Assembly (NCBI GenBank): GCA_946482655.1
Contig: CAMLSA010000059.1
Location: 1-20,248, forward strand
From: an uncultured Sphingomonas sp.
Lineage (GTDB): Bacteria > Pseudomonadota > Alphaproteobacteria > Sphingomonadales > Sphingomonadaceae
DNA: 20,248 nucleotides
Direction of reading: 5' to 3'
The notes below the pieces were generated by a model, which was not told the DNA's origin, made no database searches, and was given only the letters and a program-made list of their open reading frames with translations. Position 1 is the stretch's first letter. Every line of letters starts with the position of its first letter. A program made the position numbers and the translations under genes. Positions 3,869 to 20,248 of the stretch are shown here, in pieces.

Positions 3869-5362
3869 TCAGCGGTTGCTTTTGTTCCCGATCAGCGGGG
3901 CGAGCGGATGAACCGCGCGCGGGTTGAGCTTGAAGCCGGGCAGATCGGGCGCGGCCAGCGACCAGCGCACCGGTTGGGCGATCGGAATGAACGGTGCGAT
4001 CGCGGCGAGCCGCGCCTCGGTGTCGGTGATCATCCGGGCACGCAACGCCGGATCGGCCGTGCCGCGGGCGATCCGGAACGCCTCGTCGGCCTGAACGCTG
4101 CACGGTCCGCCCTGATTGCACAGAAAATGGGCGAGGAACCAGTCGGCGTGGCCCGCCGGCGCGACTTCGTCGATCAGCCGCAGGTCGGCGCGCGCACGGG
4201 GGCCGACCCGCTCCACCTCCACACCGATCGCGCGCCACTGCCGGCGGACGGCGGCGAACAGGATCGCCGAGCCAGGCCCCGCGGGCATCGCCACGGTCAG
4301 GCGGACCGCGCCGTCGACGCCATTTTGAGCGCGCCAGATGCCGATGATGCGCCGCGCGGTTTCGACCCGGCCGGCAAGCGCGCGTCCATCCGCCCCCCCG
4401 ACGTTGGCGAATGCCTGCGCCCAGAAGGGGCGGGTCGGTTCGACGACGTCGGTGAGGCCAGGGGGCAGGATCGCCTGGATCGATCGCCAGCCGGGCACCC
4501 CCAGCGCGGCGCCGATCGCGTCCCGGTCGAGTGCCATCGCCAGGGCCTGGCGGACCTCGGCGGCCATCAGCGCCGGCGAGTTGCGTGCGACGCGAAAGCC
4601 GAACAGTCCGGTCGCGGGGTCGATCTGGACGTTACGCGGGGGAATGTTGGCGAGTCGGGTATAGAGGAAATCGTCGAAGCTGCCCCCCGTGACCAGTTCC
4701 GCCTCGCCATTGGCGAAGCGCGCCACCGCGAGGCCGGCACGTTCTCCGCGCAGAAAAATGCGGCGTTTGGCCTCGGCCTTGGCGCCATCGTCGTCAAGGC
4801 TCTCGGCAACCGGCGGAGGGCGCAATATGGTCAGCCGGCCTACCTTGCCATCGAGCAGCAGCGGCCCCGTACCCTCGCTGTCGAGCAGCAGGGCGAATGC
4901 GGGCCCGGCGAGCAACGACATCAACTCGGGACGTGGCGCCGACAGGCGGATCTCGATCACTTCGGGGGTGACCGCGACTACTTCGCGCACCCCGTCGAGG
5001 CCGGTGCCGAGCGAAGCGTCGCGATAGCGGTGCAACAACCGGCGCAGCCGTGCGGCGACTCTCTCGGCGTCGGCGCGGTCATGATCGAGCCGGAAGGTGT
5101 AATAGAGGCCATCGTCCGAGATCGCCCAGCGCATGGCGAGCCCCGGTTCGACCTGTGCGGCCATGTCGAGTCTGACCAGCCCCTGGGCGACCGCGCCGAG
5201 CAACGCCGCTTCCACGCGGCGCGGCGGTCCCGCGGCCGGATCGCGCAATCGTATTTCGCGGCCGATTACGCTGACCGTTACCCGATCGTCGTTGCCGCTC
5301 TGGCCGCAGCCAGCCAGCAACAGCAGCGCAGTCGCGGCTGTGATGGGGATGGGGCGCATCAT
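3869..5362 (-). CDS. Peptide ABC transporter substrate-binding lipoprotein (SBP_bac_5), distal copy
   Basis: A 497-residue member of the oligopeptide/dipeptide/nickel-binding family (DppA/OppA-like, SBP family 5). The N-terminus ends in a lipobox LLAGC followed by GQSGND, so it should be a lipid-anchored periplasmic lipoprotein. The family outline is visible: an early segment [20 protein letters not shown] matching the usual 'pgLAesWevSdDGltytFkL', and later [14 protein letters not shown], matching the family's 'vRqAls.aiDr..i'. The ATG overlaps the stop of the upstream paralogue (ATGA), and ATG is doubled (5362 or 5359). No permease or ATPase gene is adjacent, so the ligand and transporter are unknown. 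The sequence is more divergent than its neighbour and may bind a different ligand or serve a non-transport role. Confidence 0.88.
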
Positions 5363-6888
5363 TTCAGCTTCAGCGTCCGGCTCGGGTGCATATTCGGAGC
5401 ATTGTCGTGCCAGCCTATGACGCGGGGGGCAACCAGTGCGCGGCTGACATAATGGTAAAGCGGGATCAGCGGCGCATCATTGACCAGGATCGCCTCGGCC
5501 GCGCGCATCGCCCGGATACGGGCGGCCGGATCGGCGATCCCCATCGCCCGGTTGAGCGCGGCGTCGAAGGCTGGGCTCGCATAGCCCGAATAGTTGAGCT
5601 GCCCCGCATCGGATCGGTGGATCGCGAGATAATTTTCGGGCGCCGCGATATCGCCGATCCAGCCTGAGCGCGCGACCTCGAAATCGCGGCGTCTGAGGTT
5701 GGCGAAGTGGAGCGAGGCTTCGCTGTTCAGGAGATGCGCCTCGACCGGGAGCGGCCGCCACATCGCCGCCATCGCCACCGCGACCCGGCGATGATCGGCA
5801 TCGCTGTTGAAACGCACGTCGAAGACCAGCTTTCGGTCCGGCCCATAGCCCGCGGCGGCGAGCAGCGCACGCGCCGCCATCAGCCGGCGTTCGCGGCTCC
5901 AGTCCGCCCACGCCGGGCGATAGCCGCCGGCCCCTCCCGTCACGCCCGGCGGCACCACGCCCCAGGCGGGCCGCGTGCCGAGTCCGATCAGCTTGCCCGC
6001 GATCCATTGCCGGTCGATCGCGATCGAGAGCGCGCGGCGGACGCGGATGTCGTCGAAGGGCGGGCGGCCGGTGTTGAATACGAAATAATAGCTGCCGTTA
6101 TAGGGCGCCACATGCGCGGCCCCCGGCAGCCGTTCGGCGATCCAGCCGGCGCGGGCGGGCGGAAAATCATTGGTCGTATCCACTTCGCCCGCGGCGAAGC
6201 TGCGCAGAGCCGTCAGCCGATCGGTCACCGGCCGCCATTCGACCTCGGCGATCGGGGCTTGCCCCCCATGCCAATGCGGGTTGCGAGCGAGGCGGAGACG
6301 CTCATTGAGCCGCCATTCGGTCAGCCGATAGGGTCCTGAGCCGACCAGCGGCCTCTCGGCGGTCCAGCCGTCTCCCGCCGCGGCGATGCGATGGACCGGC
6401 AGAGCCGCCATCGCGGGCAGCGCCAGCAGCTCCGGCAACGAGGGCATCGGAGCATGCAGATCGACGACCACGGCGCCGCCATCGGCGGTGACGTTCGCGA
6501 TGGCGGTGAACAAGGCGGCGCTCGGTGATGCGGTGCCGGGATCGCGCAGCCGCGCGAAGACCGCGGCGAAGATCCGTGCCGTGATCGGCCGGCCATCCGA
6601 GAAGCGCAGGCCGGAGCGCAGCGTGAAACGCCATCGCAGGCCGTCGGCCGAGATGCTCCAGCCCTCGGCCAGTCCGGGCTCGGCGCGGCCGTGGCCGTTG
6701 ATCCGGGTGAGCCCTTCGAACTGATCCCGGGCGACGCGGATCGTCGCCAGGTCGGAGGCCTTCTGCGGATCGAGGCTCTTCACTTCATCGTCGGCGAGGC
6801 GGATGATGCGGTCCTCTGGCAACGCCTCCCGCTTCCCGCCATGGCAGGCGGCCAGGATCAGCAGCAGCGGAAGGATGAGGCGGCGCAT
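5359..6888 (-). CDS. Peptide ABC transporter substrate-binding lipoprotein (SBP_bac_5), proximal copy
   Basis: A 509-residue member of SBP family 5 (OppA-like). The N-terminus [18 protein letters not shown] is a lipoprotein signal with lipobox LAAC. Family hallmarks: [64 protein letters not shown] and, near the end, a segment [11 protein letters not shown] typical of OppA proteins. The ATG at 6888 is preferred; a GTG two codons earlier (6894) is also in frame, and neither has a strong ribosome site. The downstream paralogue starts inside its stop. These residues support binding of a short peptide or similar ligand, but specificity cannot be read. It is the first gene of a probable three-gene unit with 3869-5362 and 3398-3835. 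Confidence 0.9.
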
Positions 6889-8910: not shown

Positions 8911-10188
8911 TTACCGCGCCGGCAGCACCACCGCCCGACATTCGCCGAGACCGATCGGCGCGAAGCCGTCGGCCCGCGCCGTCGCCGACAGGATGATCTC
9001 GTCGCCATCGGCGAGAAAGCCGCGCTCTTCACCATTGGGAAGCCTCACCGGCTGACTGCCGCCGCGCGACAGTTCCATCAGGCTGCCGAAGCCGTCCTCG
9101 CTCGGGGCCGAGATGGTGCCGGTGCCGAGCAGGTCGCCGGGCTGGAGGCTGCAGCCGTTCGACGCGTGATGGGTGACGATCTGGGCGACGGTCCAGTACA
9201 TGTTCGCGGCCGGGCTGTGGCTCAGCCGGTGCGGGATCTCTCCAGCCTCGCGCATGCTAGTGGTAAGCAGATGGACCTCGAGGTCGATCGACAGCGCACC
9301 GCTCCGCTGATCGGCCTCGTCCCAAAGATAGTCGAGCGGGCGGGGATCGCTCTCCGGCCGCGAAGGCTGCGGGATGCGGTAGGGCGCGAGCGCCTCGATG
9401 GTGATTACCCAGGGCGAGACGGTCGAGTGGAAGTTCTTGGCGAGGAACGGCCCGAGCGGCTGATATTCCCACGCCTGGAAATCGCGCGCCGACCAGTCGT
9501 TGAGCAGGCAGAAACCCGCGATATGATCGCTGGCCTCGCCGATCGGTATGGGGTGGCCCAGATCATTGCCCCGGCCGATCCAGACCCCGAGCTCGAGTTC
9601 GTAATCGAGCTGCGTGGTCGGTGCATAAACCGGAGCGTCGGCGCCGAGCGGCTTGCGCTGGCCGGCCGGCCGCACCACCGGCACGCCCGAGGGCCGGATC
9701 GACGAGGAACGGCCGTGATAGCCGATCGGCACATATTTATAATTGGGCAGCAGCGGGTTGTCGGGCCGGAACTGGCGGCCGATATTGCTGGCGTGATGAA
9801 TGCCGACATAGAAGTCGGTATAGTCGCCGATCGCTGCGGGCAGATGCATCGTGACCGACGGGATGTCATGAAGATAGGGCGCGAGCGCAGGGCGGTGGCT
9901 CTCGTTCGAAAGCAGTTCCGACAACTTCCGGCGCAGAGCGACCCTCCGCTCGGGCGCGAGCGCGAAGAGCGTGTTGAGCGTCGCGCATTTGACCTCCACC
10001 GGCAGCAGCCAGGTGATCGCGGCGAGATCGAGCAGCTTGTCGCCGATCGCGACCGCAGGGCGCCGGTTGCCCCCATCCACCGAGAAGATGCCATAGGGCA
10101 GGTTCTGGATCGGGAAGTCGGGATGGCCGTCCGCGCCGGGAACCCAGCTCGTCAGCGCCTGGTCGTGGGTCTCGTCGATTGCGATCAC
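8911..10188 (-). CDS. fahA: Fumarylacetoacetase
   Basis: A 425-residue enzyme that splits fumarylacetoacetate to fumarate and acetoacetate, the last step of tyrosine breakdown, in the cytoplasm. The N-terminus [15 protein letters not shown] and [11 protein letters not shown] is the small SH3-like domain of FAH. The catalytic domain follows, with [13 protein letters not shown], the metal-binding region around [18 protein letters not shown], and [20 protein letters not shown], then [13 protein letters not shown]. The start is GTG at 10188 because it begins inside the hmgA stop (GTGA), has GGAG 8 bases upstream, and gives the expected N-terminus. The frame is open further upstream only as an overlap with hmgA. 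It is the last gene of hppD-hmgA-fahA. Its stop lies 3 bases from the stop of the convergent receptor relic, so there is no room for a terminator between them. Confidence 0.95.
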
Positions 10189-11459
10189 CTCGGCAGCTCC
10201 GCCTTGGCGAAGCCGGCCCAGCAGTCGTCGTAGTCGACCTGCATCAGCGGGCTTTCCAGCGCGAAACGGGTCGGCCGCAGCACCGCGCGGCTCTCGAACA
10301 TGAAGGCCATGCTGTCCTCGATCCTGTAGGGTTTGAGTTCGGCGGCGATCGCGGCCTCGTAGCTCGCGCGATCCGGCCCGTGCCCCGCCATCTGGTTGTG
10401 GAGCGATCCGCCGCCGGGGGCGAAGCCGCCTGCCTTCGCGTCGTAGCTGCCGGTGATCAGGCCCATATATTCGCTCATCACATTGCGGTGAAACCAGGGC
10501 GGGCGGAAGCTGTCCTCGGCTACCGTCCAGCGCGGCGGAAAGATCACGAAGTCGCAATTGGCGATGCCCGGCGTGTCGCTGGGAGAGGTCAGCACGGTGA
10601 AGATCGACGGGTCTATATGGTCGAAGCTCACCGTATTGATCGTGTTGAAGCGGCGCAGGTCATAGCGGCAGGGGGCGAGGTTGCCGTGCCACGCGACGAC
10701 ATCGAACGGCGAATGGCCGAGTGTCGTCGACCAGAGCGAGCCCTGGAATTTCTGAACCAGCTCGGTCGGCGCATCGATATCTTCGTACCAGGCCGCGGGC
10801 GTCTCGAAGTCGCGTACGTTGGCGAGGCCGTTGGCCCCGATCGGGCCCAACTCGGGCAGGCGGAAGGAGCGGCCGCCATTTTCGCAGACATAGCCACGGG
10901 CGTGGCCGTCGATCAGCTCGACCCGGAAGCGGATGCCGCGGGGGATCACGCCGATCCAGAGCGGCCCGATCTCGATCGGACCGAGTTCGGTGACGACGCG
11001 CAGACGTCCTTGCTGCGGCACGATCAGCAGTTCGCCATCGGCGTCGAAGAAGGCGCGCTGCTCCATCGACCGGTTGGCGGCGTAGAGATGGACCCCGAGA
11101 CCCGTATTGCCGACGAAGCTGACCAGCCCGTCGATGAAATCCGTAGGGGCGACTGGCAAGGGCAGCGGATCCCAGCGCAGGCGGTTCGGAGTCGGGGGCA
11201 CCTCGTCGAACGGCTCGGAGCGGAGCAGCGACGGCTTGGCGTAGGGCTTGAACGGCGGATGGTTGGCGGCCGGCCGTATCCGGTAGAGCCAGCTTCGCCG
11301 ATTTTCTCCACGCGGGGCGGTGAAGGCGGTGCCCGACAGCTGCTCGGCATAAAGGCCGAAGGGGACGCGCTGGGGAGAGTTCCGGCCGACGGGCAAGGCG
11401 CCGGCGACCGCTTCGGTGGAGACATGATTGCCAAAGCCGGGGATGTAAGCGGAATTCAT
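10185..11459 (-). CDS. hmgA: Homogentisate 1,2-dioxygenase
   Basis: A 424-residue non-haem iron dioxygenase that opens the ring of homogentisate to maleylacetoacetate. The N-terminus [19 protein letters not shown] followed by GRNSPQ is diagnostic. The iron-ligand region is present: [14 protein letters not shown] with the His and Glu, then [14 protein letters not shown] with the further His. The length matches the family. The start ATG at 11459 is preceded by a purine-rich GGAGAGGAGGG. It lies 45 bases downstream of hppD and overlaps fahA by 4 bases, so the three are probably one transcript controlled at the hppD promoter. Maleylacetoacetate isomerase, the next step, is not in the window and must be encoded elsewhere or bypassed. 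Confidence 0.96.
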
Positions 11460-11504
11460 CCCTCCTCTCCTTCAGGGGAGCGGCTTAGCGACCGGCGGCT
11501 CAAC

Positions 11505-12584
11505 TCACTCACCGACCTTCACCACACCCCGGCGGATCTGGTCCTGTTCGATCGATTCGAACAGCGCCTTGAAATTGCCTTCGCCGAAGCCCTCATTGCC
11601 CTTGCGCTGAATGATCTCGAAGAAGATCGGGCCGACCATGTTCTCGGTAAAGATCTGCAGCAGCAGTCCGCCGCCTGTCTCGGGCGCGCCGTCGATCAAT
11701 ATGCCGCGCTTGCGCAGTTCCTCGATGTCATGGCCATGACCGGGCAAGCGTCTGTCAATTCTGTCGAAATAGCTGTCGGGGGACGTTTGAAAACGGATGC
11801 CGTTGGCGCGCAGCTTGTCGACGGTCGTGAAAATATCGTCGGTCGCGAGCGCGAGATGCTGGATGCCTTCCCCCTTATATTCGCGCAGGAATTCCTCGAC
11901 TTGGCTGTTTTCGTCCTGGCTCTCGTTGAGCGGGATGCGGATCTTATCGTCGGGTGCGGTCATGGCGCGGCTCAGCAGGGCGGTCGCCTTGCCCGCGATG
12001 TCGAAGTGTCGGATCTCGCGGAAGTTGAAGATGCGCTCGTAGAATTCCGCCCAATAGTTCATCCGGCCGCGCTGGACATTGTGGGTCAGGTGATCGAGCG
12101 TGTGCAGACCGACGGAGCGATCGTCCCTTTTGGCGCCCGGCGCCGGCCGGAAGTCGACATCGTAGATTTCCTGCGCACCGTAGCGGTCGACCAGATAAAG
12201 GTTCGAGCCGCCGATCCCCTCGATGGCCGGGATGTTGAGCTCCATCGGGCCGACCGGCGCCTCGACCTTGTTCGCGCCGCGCTTGACCGCTTTTTCAAGC
12301 GCCTTGGGGGCATCGTGGACGCGGAACGCCATCGCGTTGGCCGAGGGGCCGTGGGCGGCGCGGAAGTCGGCAGCCTGGCCACGCGCGTCCATGTTCAGGA
12401 TGAAGTTGATGTCGCCCTGGCCGTAGTGGCGGACATTCTTCGAACGATGATCGCCGAGATGGGTAAAGCCCATCGCCTCGAACAAATGGGCCAGCGCCTG
12501 CGGATCGGGCCCAGTGAACTCGACGAACTCGAAGCCGTCGAGGCCGAGCGGATTATGGTGCGGCTCGAGATGGCGATCGTTCAT
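11505..12584 (-). CDS. hppD: 4-Hydroxyphenylpyruvate dioxygenase
   Basis: A 359-residue Fe(II) enzyme of the vicinal oxygen chelate fold that turns 4-hydroxyphenylpyruvate into homogentisate. Two tandem half-domains are visible: LDGFEFVEFTGPDPQALA starts the first, and LHTLDHLTHNVQRGRM starts the second and holds the first iron His. The other ligands are the His of GIQHLALATDDI and the Glu of GPIFFEIIQRKGNEGFGEGN; the latter is the C-terminal signature, followed by FKALFESIEQDQIRRG. The start ATG at 12584 has GAGAGG 5 bases upstream. It is the first gene of the degradation unit; its promoter overlaps the operator pair upstream, facing the MarR-type gene. The enzyme is certain from these motifs. 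Confidence 0.97.
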   Translation of the reverse strand: MNDRHLEPHHNPLGLDGFEFVEFTGPDPQALAHLFEAMGFTHLGDHRSKNVRHYGQGDINFILNMDARGQAADFRAAHGPSANAMAFRVHDAPKALEKAVKRGANKVEAPVGPMELNIPAIEGIGGSNLYLVDRYGAQEIYDVDFRPAPGAKRDDRSVGLHTLDHLTHNVQRGRMNYWAEFYERIFNFREIRHFDIAGKATALLSRAMTAPDDKIRIPLNESQDENSQVEEFLREYKGEGIQHLALATDDIFTTVDKLRANGIRFQTSPDSYFDRIDRRLPGHGHDIEELRKRGILIDGAPETGGGLLLQIFTENMVGPIFFEIIQRKGNEGFGEGNFKALFESIEQDQIRRGVVKVGE

Positions 12585-13843: not shown

Positions 13844-15238
13844 CTATCCGTCACAATCCGTCGGTTGTCCCCCGGCGTGCTCATCGCCCAGGAAATCTCT
13901 CCTGAGGAACGGCCCTCGGGGCTCCCCCAGTACGGGATCGATCTTCGCGCGCAGCTCGGCATATTCGGCGGCGGGATCGCTGTCGGCGACGATGCCGCCG
14001 CCGGCGCGCGCGATCAGCCGGGTCGGCGTGACGGCGATCGAACGGATTACGATCATGCTGTCCATCGCGCCGTCGCCGCCGAGCGCGAAGACGATGCCGA
14101 AGAAGGGGCCGCGGCCCGATTCCTCGACGGCATCGATGATCTCGACCGCGCGGCGCTTGGGCGCACCGGTAATCGAGCCGCCGGGGAAGGTCGCCGCAAG
14201 CAGGTCGATCGCGTCCTCGCCCGAGCGCAATTGCGCATGCACGGCGGAGACGAGATGCCAGACCGACGCGAACCCCTCGAGCTTCGCGACCTGCGAAACC
14301 GTGACGCTGCCTTCCTCCGCCACCCGCGAGAGATCGTTGCGCAGCAGATCGCAGATCATCAGATTTTCGGCGCGGTCCTTGGCCGAACGGGCGAGGCCTT
14401 CGCCATTGCGGCGGTCCTCATCCGGATCGGCGGCACGGGGCGCCGTCCCTTTGATCGGGCGGGTCTCGATCCGTCCCGCGGCATCGCACTGGACAAAGCG
14501 TTCGGGCGACGCGCTGAGCAGGGCGCTTCCTTCACCCAGGTCGAGATAGGCGGCGAACGGCGCCGGAGTGCGGCGGCGCAACGCGAGATAGGCGGCCGCG
14601 GGGGAGAGACCGGCCGGTCGAAACGCCATGAAGCGTGTGCTGATATTGGCCTGATAGATATCGCCGGCGCGCAGATAATCGAGCACCGCCTCGATCATCG
14701 CGCGGTGGCGCTCCGGGCTGGTCTCCTCCAACCATTGTGGCGCAGGGGCGTTGGCGCCGGGCGGGGCGGCGTGCGCTAGGAGCCGATCGAGCCGTTCATT
14801 CGCGCTCAGCTCGCCGCGCGGCCGGGCGAAGCCCCAGGCGCGACGCGCGCGATGGTCGAAGCCAAGCAGCAGGTCGTAGCGGCGGACGACCAGCGCGGGG
14901 AGTTCCGGATCGGGCGCATGGCGGCTCTCCAGCCCCAGCGCGCTCGGCCCCAGATCATAGGATAACAGGCCGATCAGCCCGCCGGTAAAGGGCAACGGCC
15001 CTGCCGACCGCGCGGGCTGGTGAAGGCGGCGCAACGCCGCGAGCGCCTCCTCCATCGAAACATTGGTGAGCCGCATCTCCTCCGCCGGATCGACCGCGAT
15101 GTAGGAGGCTGCCGAACGCGGGTCGCCTACCGCAGCACTGTCGAGAAAAGCGACGCCGGGATGGCCCGCGAGGCGGGCGAACATCTCGGCGGGATCGCTC
15201 CACGGCAACTCGCGGATCAGCAGCGCGCTCTCGATCAT
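13844..15238 (-). CDS. pabB: Aminodeoxychorismate synthase component I
   Basis: A 464-residue chorismate-using enzyme that, with a glutaminase partner (PabA, not in the window), makes 4-amino-4-deoxychorismate for folate. The N-terminal domain includes FTGGLIGLLSYDLGPSALGL. The chorismate-binding domain contains GDIYQANIST (192-201), SASPERFV, then PIKGTAPR (261-268). The Lys of PIKGT is the feature that separates PabB from anthranilate synthase TrpE, which has Ala. Further motifs are ENLMICDLLRNDLSRV, FPGGSITGAPKRRAVEIID and RAGGGIVADSDPAAEYAE. The start ATG at 15238 overlaps the upstream nucleotidyltransferase stop (ATGA). The frame stays open far upstream, but only opposite other genes. 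There is no fused PabC lyase domain. Its place at the end of the HprK/PqqD unit may be simple co-transcription. Confidence 0.93.
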   Translation of the reverse strand: MIESALLIRELPWSDPAEMFARLAGHPGVAFLDSAAVGDPRSAASYIAVDPAEEMRLTNVSMEEALAALRRLHQPARSAGPLPFTGGLIGLLSYDLGPSALGLESRHAPDPELPALVVRRYDLLLGFDHRARRAWGFARPRGELSANERLDRLLAHAAPPGANAPAPQWLEETSPERHRAMIEAVLDYLRAGDIYQANISTRFMAFRPAGLSPAAAYLALRRRTPAPFAAYLDLGEGSALLSASPERFVQCDAAGRIETRPIKGTAPRAADPDEDRRNGEGLARSAKDRAENLMICDLLRNDLSRVAEEGSVTVSQVAKLEGFASVWHLVSAVHAQLRSGEDAIDLLAATFPGGSITGAPKRRAVEIIDAVEESGRGPFFGIVFALGGDGAMDSMIVIRSIAVTPTRLIARAGGGIVADSDPAAEYAELRAKIDPVLGEPRGPFLRRDFLGDEHAGGQPTDCDG

Positions 15239-16248
15239 TTGGCGCGCGCCTTGGTCCACAGATGCCGCGCCAGCATCAGCGGCGGCATCCTGATCCAGTG
15301 CGAACGGACATAAAAGCCGAGCCGGTTGAACGGACGGGTCGGCCGTCCCCAGCCGTCGCGGGCGAGAATTCGGCGGATGAACAGCAGATCGCTTGGCCGG
15401 TCGTAGCCGGCGATGCGCGGCTCGACCGGCGTGGCGAATATGCGGTCGGCGAGGCGTAGCGCCAAGCCCAGCGGCTGGCGCATCTGGTGGAGAATCGCTC
15501 GGCGTTCGAGGTCGTTCCAGAAAGGGGGCGTCGAGGCGAACAACCGCAATAGCCGATCGATGTCCCAGAGATTGCGAAGGCCACCGGCGAGATCGCCGTC
15601 GGCCAGGAGATGGGCGACCGCATGGACGATCATGTCGGCGGGGCTGAGGAGGCGCAGGCCCGGTGCAATCTCGATGCTCTCCGCGATCAGCGCCGCTGCG
15701 TCGGGCGTGCGCCCGGCGGTCAGTGGCAGGATGGTATGATGGACATCGATCATACTGCCCCGATCCTTGTGCACCAGCGGCGGCAGCTCGTGCATCCAGC
15801 GCCGGTAATAGGCCTGGTCGTAGGCGTTTTCCTTGACCCACATGAAGCCCGCGTCGAGCAGCGCCGCCTCGGCTTCGTCCAGCCGATCGCGCGGCACGAG
15901 GATGTCGAGATCGCCAACCAGGCGCCCGGCCCCGGCCGGCAAGCCCGAAAAGGCGAAGGCGCTGCCCTTGAGCAGGATGGGCGCGATGCCGAGCGGGTTC
16001 AGTGCGCGGCGCGCCATCTCGATTTCCCATAGCGCCTGTGTGCGGCCGAACGCCGCCTGCGCGCGGGCATCTTCGAGCGCCCTGGCGACCATGTCGGGTA
16101 CCGGCAGGTCCGCGAGCCGGTAGGCGAGGCTGCCGTCGAGACGCTCGGCGCGGGCGACGGAGAGCAGGCCGGTCCAGTCCTCGGGCCGGAGGGTTAGCAC
16201 CGAGACCGGATCGGCGAGCGCCACGGCGAGGGGCCGGGCGTCCTTCAA
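15235..16248 (-). CDS. Nucleotidyltransferase-family protein (NTP_transf_5-like)
   Basis: A 337-residue protein of the polymerase-beta-like nucleotidyltransferase fold (PF14907-like). The core is APILLKGSAFAFSGL, then GRLVGDLDILVPRDRLDEAE, where Asp113 and Asp115 form the metal-binding D-x-D, followed by LLDAGFMWVKENAYDQAYYR, MIDVHHTILP and LLSPADMIVHAVAHLL. The substrate is unknown. The start is placed at TTG 16248 because it lies within the stop of the HprK-like gene (TTGA) and the reading frame before it covers the kinase gene. It also overlaps pabB at the other end. Nucleotidyltransferases of this sort occur beside HprK-like kinases in peptide-modifying clusters such as the paeninodin lasso-peptide cluster, so a role in modifying a phosphorylated peptide or protein is a reasonable inference, not a demonstrated one. 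Confidence 0.82.
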   Translation of the reverse strand: MKDARPLAVALADPVSVLTLRPEDWTGLLSVARAERLDGSLAYRLADLPVPDMVARALEDARAQAAFGRTQALWEIEMARRALNPLGIAPILLKGSAFAFSGLPAGAGRLVGDLDILVPRDRLDEAEAALLDAGFMWVKENAYDQAYYRRWMHELPPLVHKDRGSMIDVHHTILPLTAGRTPDAAALIAESIEIAPGLRLLSPADMIVHAVAHLLADGDLAGGLRNLWDIDRLLRLFASTPPFWNDLERRAILHQMRQPLGLALRLADRIFATPVEPRIAGYDRPSDLLFIRRILARDGWGRPTRPFNRLGFYVRSHWIRMPPLMLARHLWTKARAK

Positions 16249-17111
16249 AGGCCCGCCTCGGCGGCGAACTGCTCGACGATAGCCATGCCGGTGGCGCTGT
16301 CGGGATAGGCGAAGCGCGCGGCGGGGACATTCTCGGCCAGGCGCAGCATCGCTCTGAATCCGGTCTGGCCGAGGGCGACATAGTTGGTCGACCCCTCGGT
16401 CAGCCGCATGAACAGCTCCGAGCGGCTGACGCCGTCGCTGGCGGGATCGAAGCCGTAGCTCGGGAAGAGGATGAGCGCCGGCCGGGCGGGTTCGTCCATC
16501 CGCGCGATCGCCTCGGCGTTCGGCCGCAGGTGGCGCAACTGGCCCTTGGGCGTGCCGCTCAGATGCGGGCCGAAGCGGGCGGGGTCGGCGATCCGCGCCT
16601 CCATCTCGGCGATGGCGCTGTTCTTGAGGCTGATCGCGCGGGGAAAGGGCAGGGCCATGCCCGCCGCCATGTCGATCATCACGAACTCGTCGGCCAGCAG
16701 CCGCCAGCCATTCTCGCCGAGCAGCGCCGCTAGCGTCGATTTCCCTGATCCCGAATCGCCCGGCATGATCAGCGCCTTTCCGCCGCGCTCGACCGCCGCT
16801 GCGTGGATCAGGAGGTGGCGGCGTTCGCCGAGCGCGACCTGCATGTTCATCGCCATCTCGGCGGCGAGCAGCGCGTGACGTAGGGCCATCGGCACGGTGT
16901 CCGGCAGACTGTGATCCCCCCCGATCGCGACTTGCGGCCGGATCCAGCGCCGCCACGGCCGCGGCGGCCCGATCCACGCCGTCGCGGTCGCGATCCCATC
17001 CTCGGGCGGGGGGTAGCCGGCATAGAGACGGCGCAACTCGGCGATAGGCGCCGGCCAGGCCGAGCCCAGGCGATAGGATATGGTGCCGATCCTGAGCGAA
17101 AGACTGTGCAT
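16245..17111 (-). CDS. HprK-related kinase A (HPr-rel-A system)
   Basis: A 288-residue protein resembling the C-terminal catalytic domain of HPr serine kinase/phosphorylase. The P-loop MPGDSGSGKSTLAALL is at about residues 117-132. It is preceded by LLIHAAAVERGGKAL, as in HprK-like kinases that start this fold with 'iHaaav', and followed by GWRLLADEFVMID, whose Asp141-Glu142 lie where HprK has its acidic site. The conserved HprK N-terminal domain and the standard HprK/P signature are not seen, so HPr is unlikely to be its obvious target. Its ATG shares one base with the stop of the PqqD-like gene (TGATG), and the nucleotidyltransferase starts within its own stop. This tight coupling says the three act together. 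The substrate is unknown; a small protein encoded just upstream is a candidate. Confidence 0.88.
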   Translation of the reverse strand: MHSLSLRIGTISYRLGSAWPAPIAELRRLYAGYPPPEDGIATATAWIGPPRPWRRWIRPQVAIGGDHSLPDTVPMALRHALLAAEMAMNMQVALGERRHLLIHAAAVERGGKALIMPGDSGSGKSTLAALLGENGWRLLADEFVMIDMAAGMALPFPRAISLKNSAIAEMEARIADPARFGPHLSGTPKGQLRHLRPNAEAIARMDEPARPALILFPSYGFDPASDGVSRSELFMRLTEGSTNYVALGQTGFRAMLRLAENVPAARFAYPDSATGMAIVEQFAAEAGL

Positions 17112-17392
17112 CAGCTGCTCTGTATCAAACCGCTGGCGATCAGCTCGGCGAGGCGTGCCTCGACCACGGCCAAGGCCTCGTCGTCATCCGGCAAGCCGAG
17201 CTGCGCGCATAGCCGCCCACAGAGCGTCGCCGCATCCATCGGCGCTTCGGCAAGCAGCGCCAGCATCTCGGGCGCGGGGCTGTCGAGAAAATGGGTGGTC
17301 CCCGACGGCCGATGGAAGACGAGCGTCAGCCCGTCGATCGCATGCGTCTGGCAGTGGCTGGGGAAATCGGTACGATAGATTGGGGCTGTCAC
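17111..17392 (-). CDS. PqqD-family protein of the HPr-rel-A system
   Basis: A 93-residue protein of the PqqD fold, the RiPP recognition element that binds leader peptides and presents them to modifying enzymes. The visible pattern is a strand region TLVFHRPSGTTHFLDSPAPE, helical MLALLAEAP, then ATLCGRLCAQLGLPDD and a final helix ALAVVEARLAELIASGLIQ. This matches the winged-helix-like PqqD layout ending in 'L...GLi'. The start is GTG at 17392, 21 bases after the stop of the small exported protein; no strong ribosome site is present. The stop shares a base with the kinase start. In PQQ or lasso-peptide systems such proteins work with a precursor peptide; the precursor here is not known. The name follows the uncharacterised kinase/PqqD pairing I recall from family models. 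Confidence 0.85.
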   Translation of the reverse strand: MTAPIYRTDFPSHCQTHAIDGLTLVFHRPSGTTHFLDSPAPEMLALLAEAPMDAATLCGRLCAQLGLPDDDEALAVVEARLAELIASGLIQSS

Positions 17393-17413
17393 CGTTGGGC
17401 CATCATCGGCCGC

Positions 17414-17833
17414 TTATTGGCGGCTTGGACTCTGCAGCGACGCATAGCAGGTATAGCCTTGCTTCCCGATCGTCAGCTTCTTGATGTAATTGTTATAGGC
17501 TTCGGTCTTGGCGGCATTGTAGCCGGGATAGTTGGTGCCGTATTTGAGTGAATTCTTGACGTCCTCGCCCTTCAGCGGCGAGCTTGGTCCGGGAAAGGCG
17601 TTGGCGGTGTTGGGATTGACCACATCGCCGTTTTTCTTGATCCACTTGCCGGCTTGGCTGCTCTGCGGGACGCGGATCGAGCAGGTCAGAGCGGAGGATG
17701 CGGCCTGAGCCATGCCGGGGCGGACGGTCACCACGGCAGCGGCGCTAAGTGCGCCGATCCGCAGCATCGACCGCCGGGTCGGGCGCTGCTCCGCGCCGCC
17801 CGCGGCTTCCGGTCGTTCATCCTTGCTACGCAT
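17414..17833 (-). CDS. Small Tat-like exported protein upstream of the PqqD/HprK module
   Basis: A 139-residue protein I do not recognise. ATG 17833 has GGGGA about 6 bases upstream; the frame is open further up, but only opposite phoR. The N-terminus carries a twin-arginine signal pattern TRRSMLR (residues 19-25), then hydrophobic IGALSAAAVVTV and a likely cleavage after GMAQA (44). The mature part is about 95 residues, rich in Asn, Tyr, Gly and Lys, with two Cys (51 and 129) that could pair, blocks such as WIKKNGDVVNPNTANAFPG and NYPGYNAAKTEAYNNYIKKL, and a Ser-rich end (ASLQSPSRQ). It heads the run that continues into the PqqD-like, kinase and nucleotidyltransferase genes, 21 bases away. 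It might be the protein they act on or one exported alongside. The coding call is good; the function is unknown. Confidence 0.8.
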   Translation of the reverse strand: MRSKDERPEAAGGAEQRPTRRSMLRIGALSAAAVVTVRPGMAQAASSALTCSIRVPQSSQAGKWIKKNGDVVNPNTANAFPGPSSPLKGEDVKNSLKYGTNYPGYNAAKTEAYNNYIKKLTIGKQGYTCYASLQSPSRQ

Positions 17834-17975
17834 AACGGTCCCCACACCCCTTCGCACCAAAGCTAATATCGCCATTCTCGTGGTGAAGCGAGGGGCAGAA
17901 TGCAGATGCCAGGCTCTGGACCGGCAACGGCTTTTATGTCCGACAGATTTCACAATTTGGTTATAAAGGGGTCTG
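17834..17975. promoter_or_regulatory. Divergent intergenic region between the exported small protein and phoR
   Basis: This 142-base gap must hold promoters for both directions. On the plus strand AAGGGG lies just ahead of the phoR ATG as its ribosome site, with AT-rich TTATAA (17960-17965) before it. I see no clear pair of Pho-box repeats and no good -35/-10 pair on either strand. Confidence 0.4.
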
Positions 17976-19226
17976 ATGAAGCATGATCCCTTGCCGCCGA
18001 CAGGCCAGGATGCCGAGGTGACCGACCGCCGGGTGATGCGCACCGTGCTTTCGCTCGGCCTTGTCGCGGGGACCGCCTGGCTGCTGTCCGCTCCCGCCGC
18101 CGCCGCGCTGGTCACCGGATTGATCGCCGCCTTCTTCACCTGGGTAGCCGGCAAGCCGGCGGGAATGCCACCGGCGCTGCTGCCGGCCCCGTCGCAGCTT
18201 GAAATGGGGGATCGTGCCGACCGGACCGAGGAGCTGATCGACGCGGTCGACGATGTGGTGCTGATCCTGGATCGGCAGCGGATCACCCACGCAAATGCCG
18301 CGGCGCGCCGGCTGTTCGGCAAGGAAAAGATCGAGGGCGATTTCCGCCTCGCGCTGCGCCATCCTATCGCTGCCGAGCTTATCGCGTCGGATCGCGAGAC
18401 CCGCACGCCGGTGGAGATCGCCGGGCTGGGCGAGCCCGACCGGCGCTGGGCGATGAGCGTCCGGCGCATCGCCGGCGGTGCCCGGCTGGTGACCTTGCGC
18501 GACCGCACCGACAGCTGGGTGGCCGAACGGATGCGGGTCGATTTCGTCGCCAATGCCAGCCATGAGCTCCGTACCCCGCTCGCCACAATCCTCGGCTTCG
18601 TCGAAACTCTGGAAGGGGGCGCCGGTGAGGACCCGGCCACCCGCGCCCGTTTCCTCGGGATCATGCTCGGCGAGGCCAAGCGGATGCAGCAGCTGGTTGA
18701 CGACCTGATCTCCCTCTCGAGGATCGAGGCCGACAGATTCGCGGTGCCTCAGGACACGCTCGCGCTTGGACCGGTGATCGACGAGGTCGTCGGCGTCGTC
18801 CGCTCGGGCATGGACGGCGATGGGGACCGCATCCAGGTCGATGCGGACTGGGCGTCCGAAGTCCGCGCAGATCGCGTCCAGATCGCCCAGCTGCTCCACA
18901 ATCTGATCGGCAATGCGATCAAATATGGCCGGCCGGGCACCCCGATTCGCGTGTCGCTCAAAGCGGTCGACGACAAGGTCAGGCTGCGTATCATCGACCA
19001 AGGCGACGGAATCGCGCCCGAGCATCTGCCGCGGCTTACCGAACGCTTCTACCGGGTCGATCCTGGGCGGAGCCGCGCGGTCGGCGGCACCGGCCTCGGC
19101 CTCGCCATCGTCAAGCACATCGCCGAGCGCCACCGCGCGACCCTCGACATCGCTTCCAGGGTTGGCGAAGGCACGGCGGTCACTGTAACATTCCCGGCTC
19201 TCCGGTCGGGGCCGATGTCATCATAG
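17976..19226 (+). CDS. phoR: Phosphate regulon sensor histidine kinase PhoR
   Basis: A 416-residue membrane kinase that, with PhoB, controls the phosphate-starvation response. A hydrophobic region at residues about 22-58 is long enough for two short membrane spans. A PAS domain follows (ELIDAVDDVVLILDRQRITH at 86-105, then ANAAARRLFG). The HisKA box is DFVANASHELRTPLATILGF, with phospho-acceptor His196. The ATPase domain has the N box LLHNLIGNAIKYGRPG, the G1 box IIDQGDGIAPEH, the F-box-like RFYRVDPGRSR and the G2 box GGTGLGLAIVKHI. The DFxANvSHELRTPL wording and the phoU-phoB neighbours make it PhoR rather than another kinase. A 67-base gap separates it from phoU. The start ATG is supported by the AAGGGG ribosome site 4 bases upstream. 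Confidence 0.94.
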   Translation: MKHDPLPPTGQDAEVTDRRVMRTVLSLGLVAGTAWLLSAPAAAALVTGLIAAFFTWVAGKPAGMPPALLPAPSQLEMGDRADRTEELIDAVDDVVLILDRQRITHANAAARRLFGKEKIEGDFRLALRHPIAAELIASDRETRTPVEIAGLGEPDRRWAMSVRRIAGGARLVTLRDRTDSWVAERMRVDFVANASHELRTPLATILGFVETLEGGAGEDPATRARFLGIMLGEAKRMQQLVDDLISLSRIEADRFAVPQDTLALGPVIDEVVGVVRSGMDGDGDRIQVDADWASEVRADRVQIAQLLHNLIGNAIKYGRPGTPIRVSLKAVDDKVRLRIIDQGDGIAPEHLPRLTERFYRVDPGRSRAVGGTGLGLAIVKHIAERHRATLDIASRVGEGTAVTVTFPALRSGPMSS

Positions 19227-19293
19227 TGCAACAACCGGCTTCCATAGGCGGCGTCAAAGCGGCGCCGGCCTCCGGAGCCCGAGGGAAAAGACC

Positions 19294-19992
19294 ATGGCAA
19301 CGGGACATACGGTTAAGGCGTTCGACGAGGATCTCGGCCAGCTTCGGGCGTTGATCTCCGAAATGGGCGGCAGGGCCGAGACGGCGATCACCGGCTCGCT
19401 CGAGGCGCTGGTCAACCGCGATCTCGAATCGGCGGGGAAGATCGTCGAGGGCGACAAAAAGATCGACGAGCTCGAGCAGGAAGTCGAACGCCAGGTCGTG
19501 CGCCTGATCGCGCTGCGCGCGCCGATGGCCGACGACCTGCGCGAGATACTCGCCGCGCTGAAGATCGCCGGCCTGGTCGAGCGGATGGGCGACTATGCGA
19601 AGAATATCGCGAAGCGCGCTCCCTTGCTTCAGGATGCGCGCGGTATGGAAGCACTGTCGGTGCTCCCGGCGATGGGCAAGATCGCGACCGAAATGGTCCG
19701 TAACGTTCTCGACGCGTTCGTGTTGCGCGATGCCGACGCCGCGGTCGCGGTCTCGGCGCGCGACAAAGCGGTCGACGATTTCTACAACAGCCTGTTTCGC
19801 ACGCTGTTGACCCATATGATGGAAAATCCTCACAACATCACCGCCTCGACCCATTTGCTGTTCATCGCCAAGAACATCGAACGGATCGGCGACCATGCCA
19901 CCAACGTTGCCGAAATGGTCTATTTCGCGGCGACAGGCCGCCAGATGGCGGAGCGCGCCAAGGGCGAGGACCCCTTGGCGGGAGAGGCCTGA
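19294..19992 (+). CDS. phoU: Phosphate signalling complex protein PhoU
   Basis: A 232-residue all-helical cytoplasmic protein that lets PhoR sense phosphate through the Pst transporter and keeps PhoR off when phosphate is plentiful. Two similar three-helix repeats are visible. Each ends with the metal-cluster pattern of PhoU: GLVERMGDYAKNIAK in the first and NIERIGDHATNVAEMVYF in the second. The N-terminus TVKAFDEDLGQLRALISEMG and the segment RAPMADDLREILAALKIA are standard. GAGGGA lies about 7-8 bases before the ATG. The stop shares one base with the phoB start (TGATG). Full length. Confidence 0.96.
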   Translation: MATGHTVKAFDEDLGQLRALISEMGGRAETAITGSLEALVNRDLESAGKIVEGDKKIDELEQEVERQVVRLIALRAPMADDLREILAALKIAGLVERMGDYAKNIAKRAPLLQDARGMEALSVLPAMGKIATEMVRNVLDAFVLRDADAAVAVSARDKAVDDFYNSLFRTLLTHMMENPHNITASTHLLFIAKNIERIGDHATNVAEMVYFAATGRQMAERAKGEDPLAGEA

Positions 19993-20248
19993 TGGCGCGT
20001 GCACGCGTCCTCCTGGTGGAGGATGATGCAGCGCTCGCGGAACTGGTCAGCTGGCATCTGGAACGTGAGGATTTCGAGGTCGAGCGCACCGGCGACGGCG
20101 AGGAGGCGATCCTCCTCGCGCGTGAGACGCCGCCCGATCTGGTCCTGCTCGACTGGATGATCGAAGGGGTTTCGGGGATCGAGGTATGCCGGCGTCTACG
20201 CCGCCTGCCCGATACCGCCAATGTGCCGATCATCATGCTCACCGCGCG
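19992..20248 (+). CDS. phoB: Phosphate regulon response regulator PhoB (3' end outside window)
   Basis: The first 85 codons of an OmpR/PhoB-type response regulator. The receiver domain is evident: RVLLVEDDAALAELVSWHLE with the acidic pair, then PDLVLLDWMIEGVSGIEVCR with the phospho-acceptor Asp in LLDWM, and VPIIMLTAR with the switch Thr. The DNA-binding half is beyond the window. GGAGAGG lies just before the ATG, which shares a base with the phoU stop. The phoU neighbour and sequence point to PhoB rather than another OmpR-like regulator. Confidence 0.93.
   Translation, partial: MARARVLLVEDDAALAELVSWHLEREDFEVERTGDGEEAILLARETPPDLVLLDWMIEGVSGIEVCRRLRRLPDTANVPIIMLTA

What the first reader, a model, noticed from the sequence alone, without database searches (positions are those of the whole stretch)
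15235..17833. Compact PqqD-like / HprK-like kinase / nucleotidyltransferase module behind a small exported protein
Seen: four minus-strand genes in a row with overlaps of 1-4 bases (TGATG, TTGA) and one 21-base gap, encoding a Tat-like small protein, a PqqD-fold protein, a P-loop HprK-like kinase and a D-x-D nucleotidyltransferase. Known: PqqD folds bind peptides for modification, and HprK-like kinases with nucleotidyltransferases occur in lasso-peptide clusters such as paeninodin, where the kinase phosphorylates the precursor's C-terminal Ser. No Asn-synthetase-like cyclase, transglutaminase-like peptidase or radical SAM enzyme is in the window. Inference: a stripped-down system in which the PqqD-like protein presents a peptide or protein for phosphorylation and perhaps nucleotidylation.
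Basis: partly seen in the sequence, partly recalled or inferred. Interest (0 to 1): 0.75.

Follow-up and report, generated by a model that had tools for sequence, protein, structure and literature searches.

The report
Exported small protein with dedicated kinase
The four genes belong to a widespread bacterial cassette in which a kinase is almost always accompanied by a small exported protein, which is therefore the kinase's likely target, though no modification has yet been measured.

Summary
Four minus-strand genes with the stated overlaps encode a Tat-signal protein (SMALL), NCBIfam PqqD_rel_X, NCBIfam HprK_rel_A and a Pfam NTP_transf_5 nucleotidyltransferase; pabB overlaps the last by 4 bases and was missed. 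The kinase/PqqD pair is already named "HPr-rel-A system" in NCBIfam, but my searches of the held library found no paper on it, and SMALL matches no family. Outside that group the cassette mostly sits in exosortase-A/PEP-CTERM polysaccharide loci, again behind a twin-Arg small protein; a partner was seen in 132 of 133 kinase-positive genomes (10 judged by eye). Two partner families share a first Cys and a C-terminal [ST]-C-hydrophobic-x-Ser motif. Catalytic residues of both enzymes are invariant, and in one genome kinase and nucleotidyltransferase are fused. Best reading: PqqD presents SMALL, the kinase phosphorylates it (perhaps Ser132, as lasso-peptide kinases do a C-terminal Ser), the nucleotidyltransferase elaborates it, Tat exports it. 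Partnership is shown by co-occurrence; the chemistry is inferred.

The parts
17414..17833 (-). SMALL: 139-aa protein with twin-Arg (Tat-type) signal, two invariant Cys (C51, C129) and C-terminal T128-C129-Y130-A131-S132; proposed client and substrate
17111..17392 (-). PqqD_rel_X (TIGR04353), PqqD/RRE-type peptide-binding protein
16245..17111 (-). HprK_rel_A (TIGR04352) kinase; H103, K124, T126, D141 and E142 invariant in 80 of 80 aligned kinases
15235..16248 (-). NTP_transf_5 (PF14907) nucleotidyltransferase; D113, D115 and D168 invariant in 74 of 74 aligned sequences
13844..15238 (-). pabB (aminodeoxychorismate synthase component I), overlapping by 4 bases; found in 2 of 46 sphingomonad loci, so not a core part
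17976..19226 (+). phoR-type histidine kinase, divergent; conserved neighbour of SMALL in sphingomonads
17834..17975 (.). intergenic region shared by SMALL and phoR; no Pho box found

Best explanation
The genes form an HPr-rel-A system whose client is the small Tat-exported protein. SHOWN by comparison: the small protein goes with the kinase almost without exception, and the enzyme active sites are conserved. INFERRED: (1) the PqqD-like protein binds the N-terminal region of SMALL in the cytoplasm and hands it to the enzymes; (2) the HprK-like kinase uses ATP to phosphorylate a Ser of SMALL, most likely the invariant Ser132 of the C-terminal T/S-C-hydrophobic-x-Ser motif; (3) the nucleotidyltransferase transfers a nucleotidyl or sugar group, probably to that phosphate; (4) the modified protein is exported through Tat, where its two Cys may form a disulfide; (5) outside it works with extracellular polysaccharide, since beyond sphingomonads the cassette mostly lies in exosortase-A polysaccharide loci. 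My probabilities: SMALL is the client 0.75; SMALL is phosphorylated by this kinase 0.5; at Ser132 0.35; nucleotidyltransferase acts on the same residue 0.25; polysaccharide-linked role 0.45.
For: Co-occurrence: SMALL in 82 of 82 kinase-positive and 0 of 167 kinase-negative Sphingomonadaceae (Fisher 5.5e-68, kinship ignored). It persists when unlinked: in G043, G225 and G123 SMALL stays beside phoR while PqqD-kinase-nucleotidyltransferase lie elsewhere; in G041 SMALL-PqqD are together and kinase-nucleotidyltransferase elsewhere. SMALL-PqqD pairs without the kinase on the fetched stretch: L165, L167, L169. Phylum sample: profile A5 matches 39 of 398 genomes, all 39 kinase-positive, 18 of them outside its seed, and 0 of 337 kinase-negative. 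Motif C-[WYFLI]-x-S-[FLIVM] in the last 40 residues: 101 of 103 database relatives (the other two end before it) and 45 of 46 sphingomonad loci, against 2 of 379 other 90-300 aa genes without a twin-Arg signal. The two partner families align over signal, cleavage site and first Cys (hhalign probability 94.7). Active sites invariant; the HprK core match includes His, Walker A and acidic pair. In L149 kinase and nucleotidyltransferase are one 706-aa protein. Motif class follows the kinase tree with 2 changes. Lasso kinases phosphorylate a C-terminal Ser and one nucleotidyltransferase adds hexoses to that phosphate (PMC8498205, passages).
Against: No modification has been observed. Ser132 is not at the extreme C-terminus, unlike lasso precursors. 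Thirteen of 84 loci have partners without the motif, 10 of them longer twin-Arg proteins that I accepted by eye; there the acceptor would have to be another residue. Ser132 could be conserved for structure: residues 51-130 are predicted with high confidence. Hhalign did not align the two families at the C-terminus, so the shared motif could be convergent or too short to score. Ten of the 82 SMALL matches are weak (E 4e-9 to 2e-4) and mostly to the signal region, and each search scored only part of its candidates (at most 16 a genome; at most 8), so absences hold at that sensitivity. No test was corrected for kinship.
Confidence: 0.5

Rival explanations
1. SMALL is a partner or effector of the pathway but not the substrate: kinase and nucleotidyltransferase make an activated small molecule or sugar (for polysaccharide), and SMALL binds or carries the product outside.
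Against: A PqqD/RRE-type protein, whose known job is peptide binding (recalled), is in the operon; SMALL-PqqD can be separated from the kinase as a pair; Tat export suits a protein folded or modified in the cytoplasm (recalled); none of the 46 sphingomonad stretches showed stp1, stp2 or the XrtA amidotransferase at my thresholds, though G540 has them just beyond.
Confidence: 0.25
2. It is a phosphate-responsive system: the HprK-type kinase/phosphorylase responds to inorganic phosphate, and SMALL reports on or buffers phosphate, which is why it sits beside phoR and pst.
For: phoR is in 44 of 46 sphingomonad loci and pstC in 38 of 46; SMALL stays beside phoR even when the kinase has moved; the Vibrio plasmid copy lies beside aminoethylphosphonate genes; HprK uses phosphate for dephosphorylation (recalled).
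Against: No Pho box in the shared intergenic region: 1 of 36 loci at 0.05 or less. phoR at my threshold is in 0 of 38 other loci. The linkage may be inherited gene order.
Confidence: 0.12
3. It is a relic or variant of a lasso-peptide pathway that makes a true RiPP: SMALL is cut to a short modified peptide.
For: Same enzyme types as lasso tailoring (RRE-type protein, HprK-like kinase, nucleotidyltransferase, sulfotransferase domain in 10 of 38 loci).
Against: No cyclase or leader peptidase among the 20 called window genes; SMALL is 139 aa with about 80 residues predicted as a folded domain and a Tat-type signal; conserved residues are spread over the mature part.
Confidence: 0.08

Closest known systems
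HPr-rel-A system (NCBIfam TIGR04352 HprK-related kinase A and TIGR04353 PqqD family peptide chaperone)
   Same: Both window proteins score above the curated cut-offs
   Different: The family names seen here name no substrate; the small exported partner, its motif and the two gene settings come from this work. I have not seen NCBIfam's curator comments, which may say more.
Lasso-peptide tailoring by HPr-kinase homologue and nucleotidyltransferase (paeninodin, pseudomycoidin)
   Same: HprK-type kinase, nucleotidyltransferase, RRE/PqqD-type presenter, sometimes a sulfotransferase; a Ser near the C-terminus of the partner (PMC8498205, passages)
   Different: No lasso cyclase or B2 peptidase in the window; partner is a Tat-type protein of roughly 110-290 aa with a predicted folded domain; Ser not terminal. 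Whether the lasso enzymes are of the same families was not tested.
Exosortase-A/PEP-CTERM polysaccharide loci
   Same: Outside sphingomonads the cassette mostly sits among stp1, stp2, amidotransferase TIGR03108 or PrsR; in G540 cassette, phoR-pst-phoU-phoB and the XrtA locus are contiguous
   Different: SMALL has no PEP-CTERM tail; in 6 of 82 kinase-positive Sphingomonadaceae, including the window's nearest relative in my set (G221), XrtA is not above cut-off
HPr kinase/phosphorylase (HprK)
   Same: Nucleotide-binding core with His, Walker A and acidic pair aligned to 1jb1/2qmh
   Different: Far below the HprK cut-off (21.4 of 240 bits)

Membership tests
HPr-rel-A system | Kinase above TIGR04352 cut-off | tested here: met
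   227.5 bits against 200
HPr-rel-A system | Adjacent PqqD homologue above TIGR04353 cut-off | tested here: met
   73.4 bits against 35
HPr-rel-A system | Peptide modification by the system | not testable with these tools
   needs mass spectrometry
Lasso-peptide biosynthetic cluster | Asn-synthetase-like cyclase | tested here: not met
   none in Pfam scans of the 20 called window genes
Lasso-peptide biosynthetic cluster | Transglutaminase-like leader peptidase | tested here: not met
   none among the 20 called genes
Lasso-peptide biosynthetic cluster | Short precursor with threadable core | tested here: not met
   139 aa; residues 51-130 predicted as a folded domain, pLDDT 85-93
HPr(Ser) kinase/phosphorylase HprK | Above hpr-ser (TIGR00679) cut-off | tested here: not met
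   21.4 bits against 240
HPr(Ser) kinase/phosphorylase HprK | His, Walker A and acidic catalytic residues | tested here: met
   aligned with 1jb1; H103, K124, D141, E142 in 80 of 80; which residues are catalytic is recalled
Pol-beta-type nucleotidyltransferase | DxD plus third carboxylate on the fold | tested here: met
Tat substrate | Twin-Arg motif, hydrophobic stretch, A-x-A | tested here: met
   R20-R21 invariant in 50 of 50; transport itself not tested
Exosortase/PEP-CTERM substrate | C-terminal PEP-CTERM tail | tested here: not met
   SMALL ends SLQSPSRQ without PEP, membrane stretch or basic tail; no Pfam or NCBIfam match above cut-off

The most novel reading that the evidence does not exclude
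A new kind of bacterial protein phosphoglycosylation: a dedicated kinase and nucleotidyltransferase, guided by a PqqD-type presenter, build a phosphate-linked (in some lineages also sulfated) sugar on the C-terminal Ser of a small protein that Tat then exports, giving extracellular polysaccharide a protein anchor or primer. The lasso kinase/nucleotidyltransferase pair would then be a borrowed form of this protein-modifying system.
Probability: 0.13. Interest if true: 0.88.

Novelty: new variant of a known kind. Interest (0 to 1): 0.62.

Why it matters
The kinase family is common (82 of 249 Sphingomonadaceae and 61 of 398 genomes of the phylum sample), and I found no paper that names its substrate. 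A co-inherited small protein with one invariant C-terminal Ser turns that open question into one experiment. If right, it joins three topics that are not linked in the papers I could search: lasso-peptide phosphorylation, exosortase polysaccharide loci and Tat export.

Tried and rejected

Selections and rows left out. Wide stretches: 40 of the 82 family genomes (best-scoring rows without G026 and G001, plus G221) and 40 of the 61 phylum genomes. Of 27 small proteins found by HMM outside sphingomonads, L010, L137, L142, L143 (no C-terminal motif), L121 and L123 (no start codon picked) were not used in A5. The iterated HMM can be driven by the signal peptide. The joint alignment of 135 rows took locus rows only if they held the motif, so its 100% for C129 and S132 is partly circular; unfiltered counts are those. 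Kinase alignment and tree: 80 of 84 loci (gene caller failed on L082, L096, L122, L138); for the tree L077, L132 and L134 were labelled by small genes lying elsewhere or divergent. The bit thresholds are mine. The XrtA figure 76 of 82 was read by hand. In some searches four matches contain a stop codon read through by the tool (G113, G030, G053; G340).
Full report
Observation. The PqqD-like protein and the kinase are equivalogs in NCBIfam (TIGR04353, TIGR04352), both above cut-off, so the pair already has a name, 'HPr-rel-A system'. The protein database also carries a Pfam accession for the kinase, PF27840, on every relative listed. The fourth protein is PF14907. The small protein matches no family. 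The 20 called genes of the window were scanned with Pfam; there is no cyclase, leader peptidase or radical SAM enzyme.

The small protein is a family. A search of 5.8 billion proteins gave 103 relatives. An alignment of 50 shows R20, R21, C51, G126, T128, C129 and S132 among the invariant residues. Residues 1-47 are modelled with pLDDT mostly under 50 and 51-130 with about 85-93; the model has no PDB match at E 0.001.

Co-occurrence in Sphingomonadaceae. Of 249 genomes, 82 have the kinase above cut-off and 82 match the small-protein profile A3: the same 82, with 0 of the 167 others. A3 was built from the window, 48 database proteins and L001; some of these may come from the very genomes searched, so the telling side is the 0 of 167. 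Limits: ten of the 82 matches are weak (E 4e-9 to 2e-4), mostly to the signal region, nine of them at or next to the expected place and the tenth (G041) beside a PqqD gene; at most 16 candidates per genome were scored. In 77 the match lies 277-1618 bases upstream of the kinase match on the same strand. The five exceptions are G086 (contig end) and four real separations: in G043, G225 and G123 the small gene stays beside phoR while PqqD, kinase and nucleotidyltransferase are elsewhere; in G041 small gene and PqqD stay beside phoR and kinase with nucleotidyltransferase are on another contig. Retention without linkage is the strongest single argument for a functional bond.

Wider phylum. Of 398 genomes, 61 have the kinase above cut-off. 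I fetched wide stretches for 40 of the 82 and 40 of the 61 and called genes with my own script. Outside sphingomonads the gene before PqqD is, with few exceptions, again a small twin-Arg protein. Twenty-one of these gave profile A5, which matches 39 of 398 genomes, all kinase-positive, 18 of them not in the seed, and 0 of 337 kinase-negative; some non-seed matches are short and cover the signal region only (G349, G373, G540, G041), and at most 8 candidates per genome were scored. The other 22 kinase-positive genomes: 9 sphingomonads matched by A3, 2 with the sphingomonad form adjacent (L146, L147), 10 with a longer twin-Arg protein of another type adjacent (L117, L119, L120, L133, L136, L140, L141, L142, L144, L145; judged by eye), and G433, whose contig ends inside the kinase. 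In L132 and L134 no small gene precedes the kinase; A5 finds it divergent next to the kinase in G382 and on another contig in G329. Thus 60 of 61 here and, with 10 genomes shared, 132 of 133 in all; the one left cannot be judged.

Motif. C-[WYFLI]-x-S-[FLIVM] lies in the last 40 residues of 101 of 103 database relatives (the other two end before it) and in 45 of 46 sphingomonad loci; L077 has no small gene beside the kinase, and its genome's copy on another contig ends in the same motif. Outside sphingomonads the iterated profile found 27 of 38 loci, 23 with the motif. Among 379 other genes of 90-300 aa without a twin-Arg-like start in the same stretches 2 have it. Ten of the 13 loci without it carry [ST]-x-G-x-[WF] or [ST]-P-G shortly after the signal; no background was measured for that weaker pattern. 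On a kinase tree of 80 the motif class changes twice; species kinship would give the same, so this is consistent with recognition, not proof. Profile comparison aligns signal, cleavage site and first Cys of the two families (probability 94.7) but not the C-terminus.

Surroundings. In sphingomonads phoR is in 44 of 46 loci, pstC in 38 and glmU in 38. Elsewhere 28 of 38 loci hold at least one of stp1, stp2, XrtA amidotransferase or PrsR within the stretch fetched; ten do not, though in one of these (L117, genome G532) stp1, stp2 and XrtA lie some 12-16 kb away. Ten of 38 hold a sulfotransferase domain; a TPR-sulfotransferase lies between kinase and nucleotidyltransferase in L129, L130, L131, L150, L152 and L156 (four of the six scanned with Pfam). 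In G540 the cassette, phoR-pst-phoU-phoB and the exosortase-A locus are contiguous, a bridge between the two settings. XrtA above cut-off: 25 of 35 XrtA genomes of the phylum sample have the kinase against 36 of 363 others; in Sphingomonadaceae 76 of 82 kinase-positive against 87 of 167 kinase-negative genomes have XrtA. The window's nearest relative in the tree, G221, is among the six without, so XrtA is not required.

Mechanism. The data establish a partner, not a reaction. The reading that needs least: the PqqD-type protein binds the N-terminal region, the kinase phosphorylates a Ser, the nucleotidyltransferase adds to it, and Tat exports the product. Precedent: HPr-kinase homologues phosphorylate the C-terminal Ser of lasso precursors, in pseudomycoidin a nucleotidyltransferase attaches hexoses to that phosphate, and some lasso clusters also have a sulfotransferase (PMC8498205, passages). 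Whether the lasso nucleotidyltransferase is of PF14907 was not tested. Ser132 is the best candidate: with R21, C51 and C129 it is one of four positions that never vary across both families, and position 128 is always Ser or Thr (partly circular; unfiltered counts). Ser47 (97%) is a second candidate.

Known or new. The enzymes and the system name are known to NCBIfam. I found the small partner, its motif, its co-occurrence and the two settings in no paper of the searches made; subscription papers and NCBIfam comments were not seen. I rate it a new variant of a known kind: lasso-type tailoring enzymes that appear to serve a folded, Tat-exported protein.

Noticed in passing
window 17976-20246: phoR, phoU and phoB follow each other without the pst genes that separate them in most relatives (also in L086, L108, L113, L115, L116).
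   Followed up: partly
window 8911-12584: Homogentisate pathway genes: fumarylacetoacetase, homogentisate dioxygenase and 4-hydroxyphenylpyruvate dioxygenase with a divergent MarR regulator.
   Followed up: no
window 3869-6888: Two tandem solute-binding proteins of family SBP_bac_5 overlapping by 4 bases, without permease or ATPase genes among the called window genes.
   Followed up: no
L096 (G204): The small gene appears split between two reading frames while the kinase match is intact: a sequencing error or a decaying copy.
   Followed up: no
L165 (G372), L167 (G317), L169 (G429): SMALL-PqqD pairs on contigs other than the kinase hit; that of G429 is a second copy, so one kinase may serve several clients.
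   Followed up: partly
L149 5944-8064 (G429): Natural fusion of the kinase and the nucleotidyltransferase in one 706-aa protein.
   Followed up: yes
L010 8710-11777: Vibrio alfacsensis plasmid carries a 270-aa twin-Arg protein, the kinase and the nucleotidyltransferase beside aminoethylphosphonate genes, with no PqqD gene annotated between.
   Followed up: no
L120, L141 and relatives: Loci of the second partner type can carry a trypsin-like protease and PrsK/PrsR or PrsT next to the cassette.
   Followed up: no
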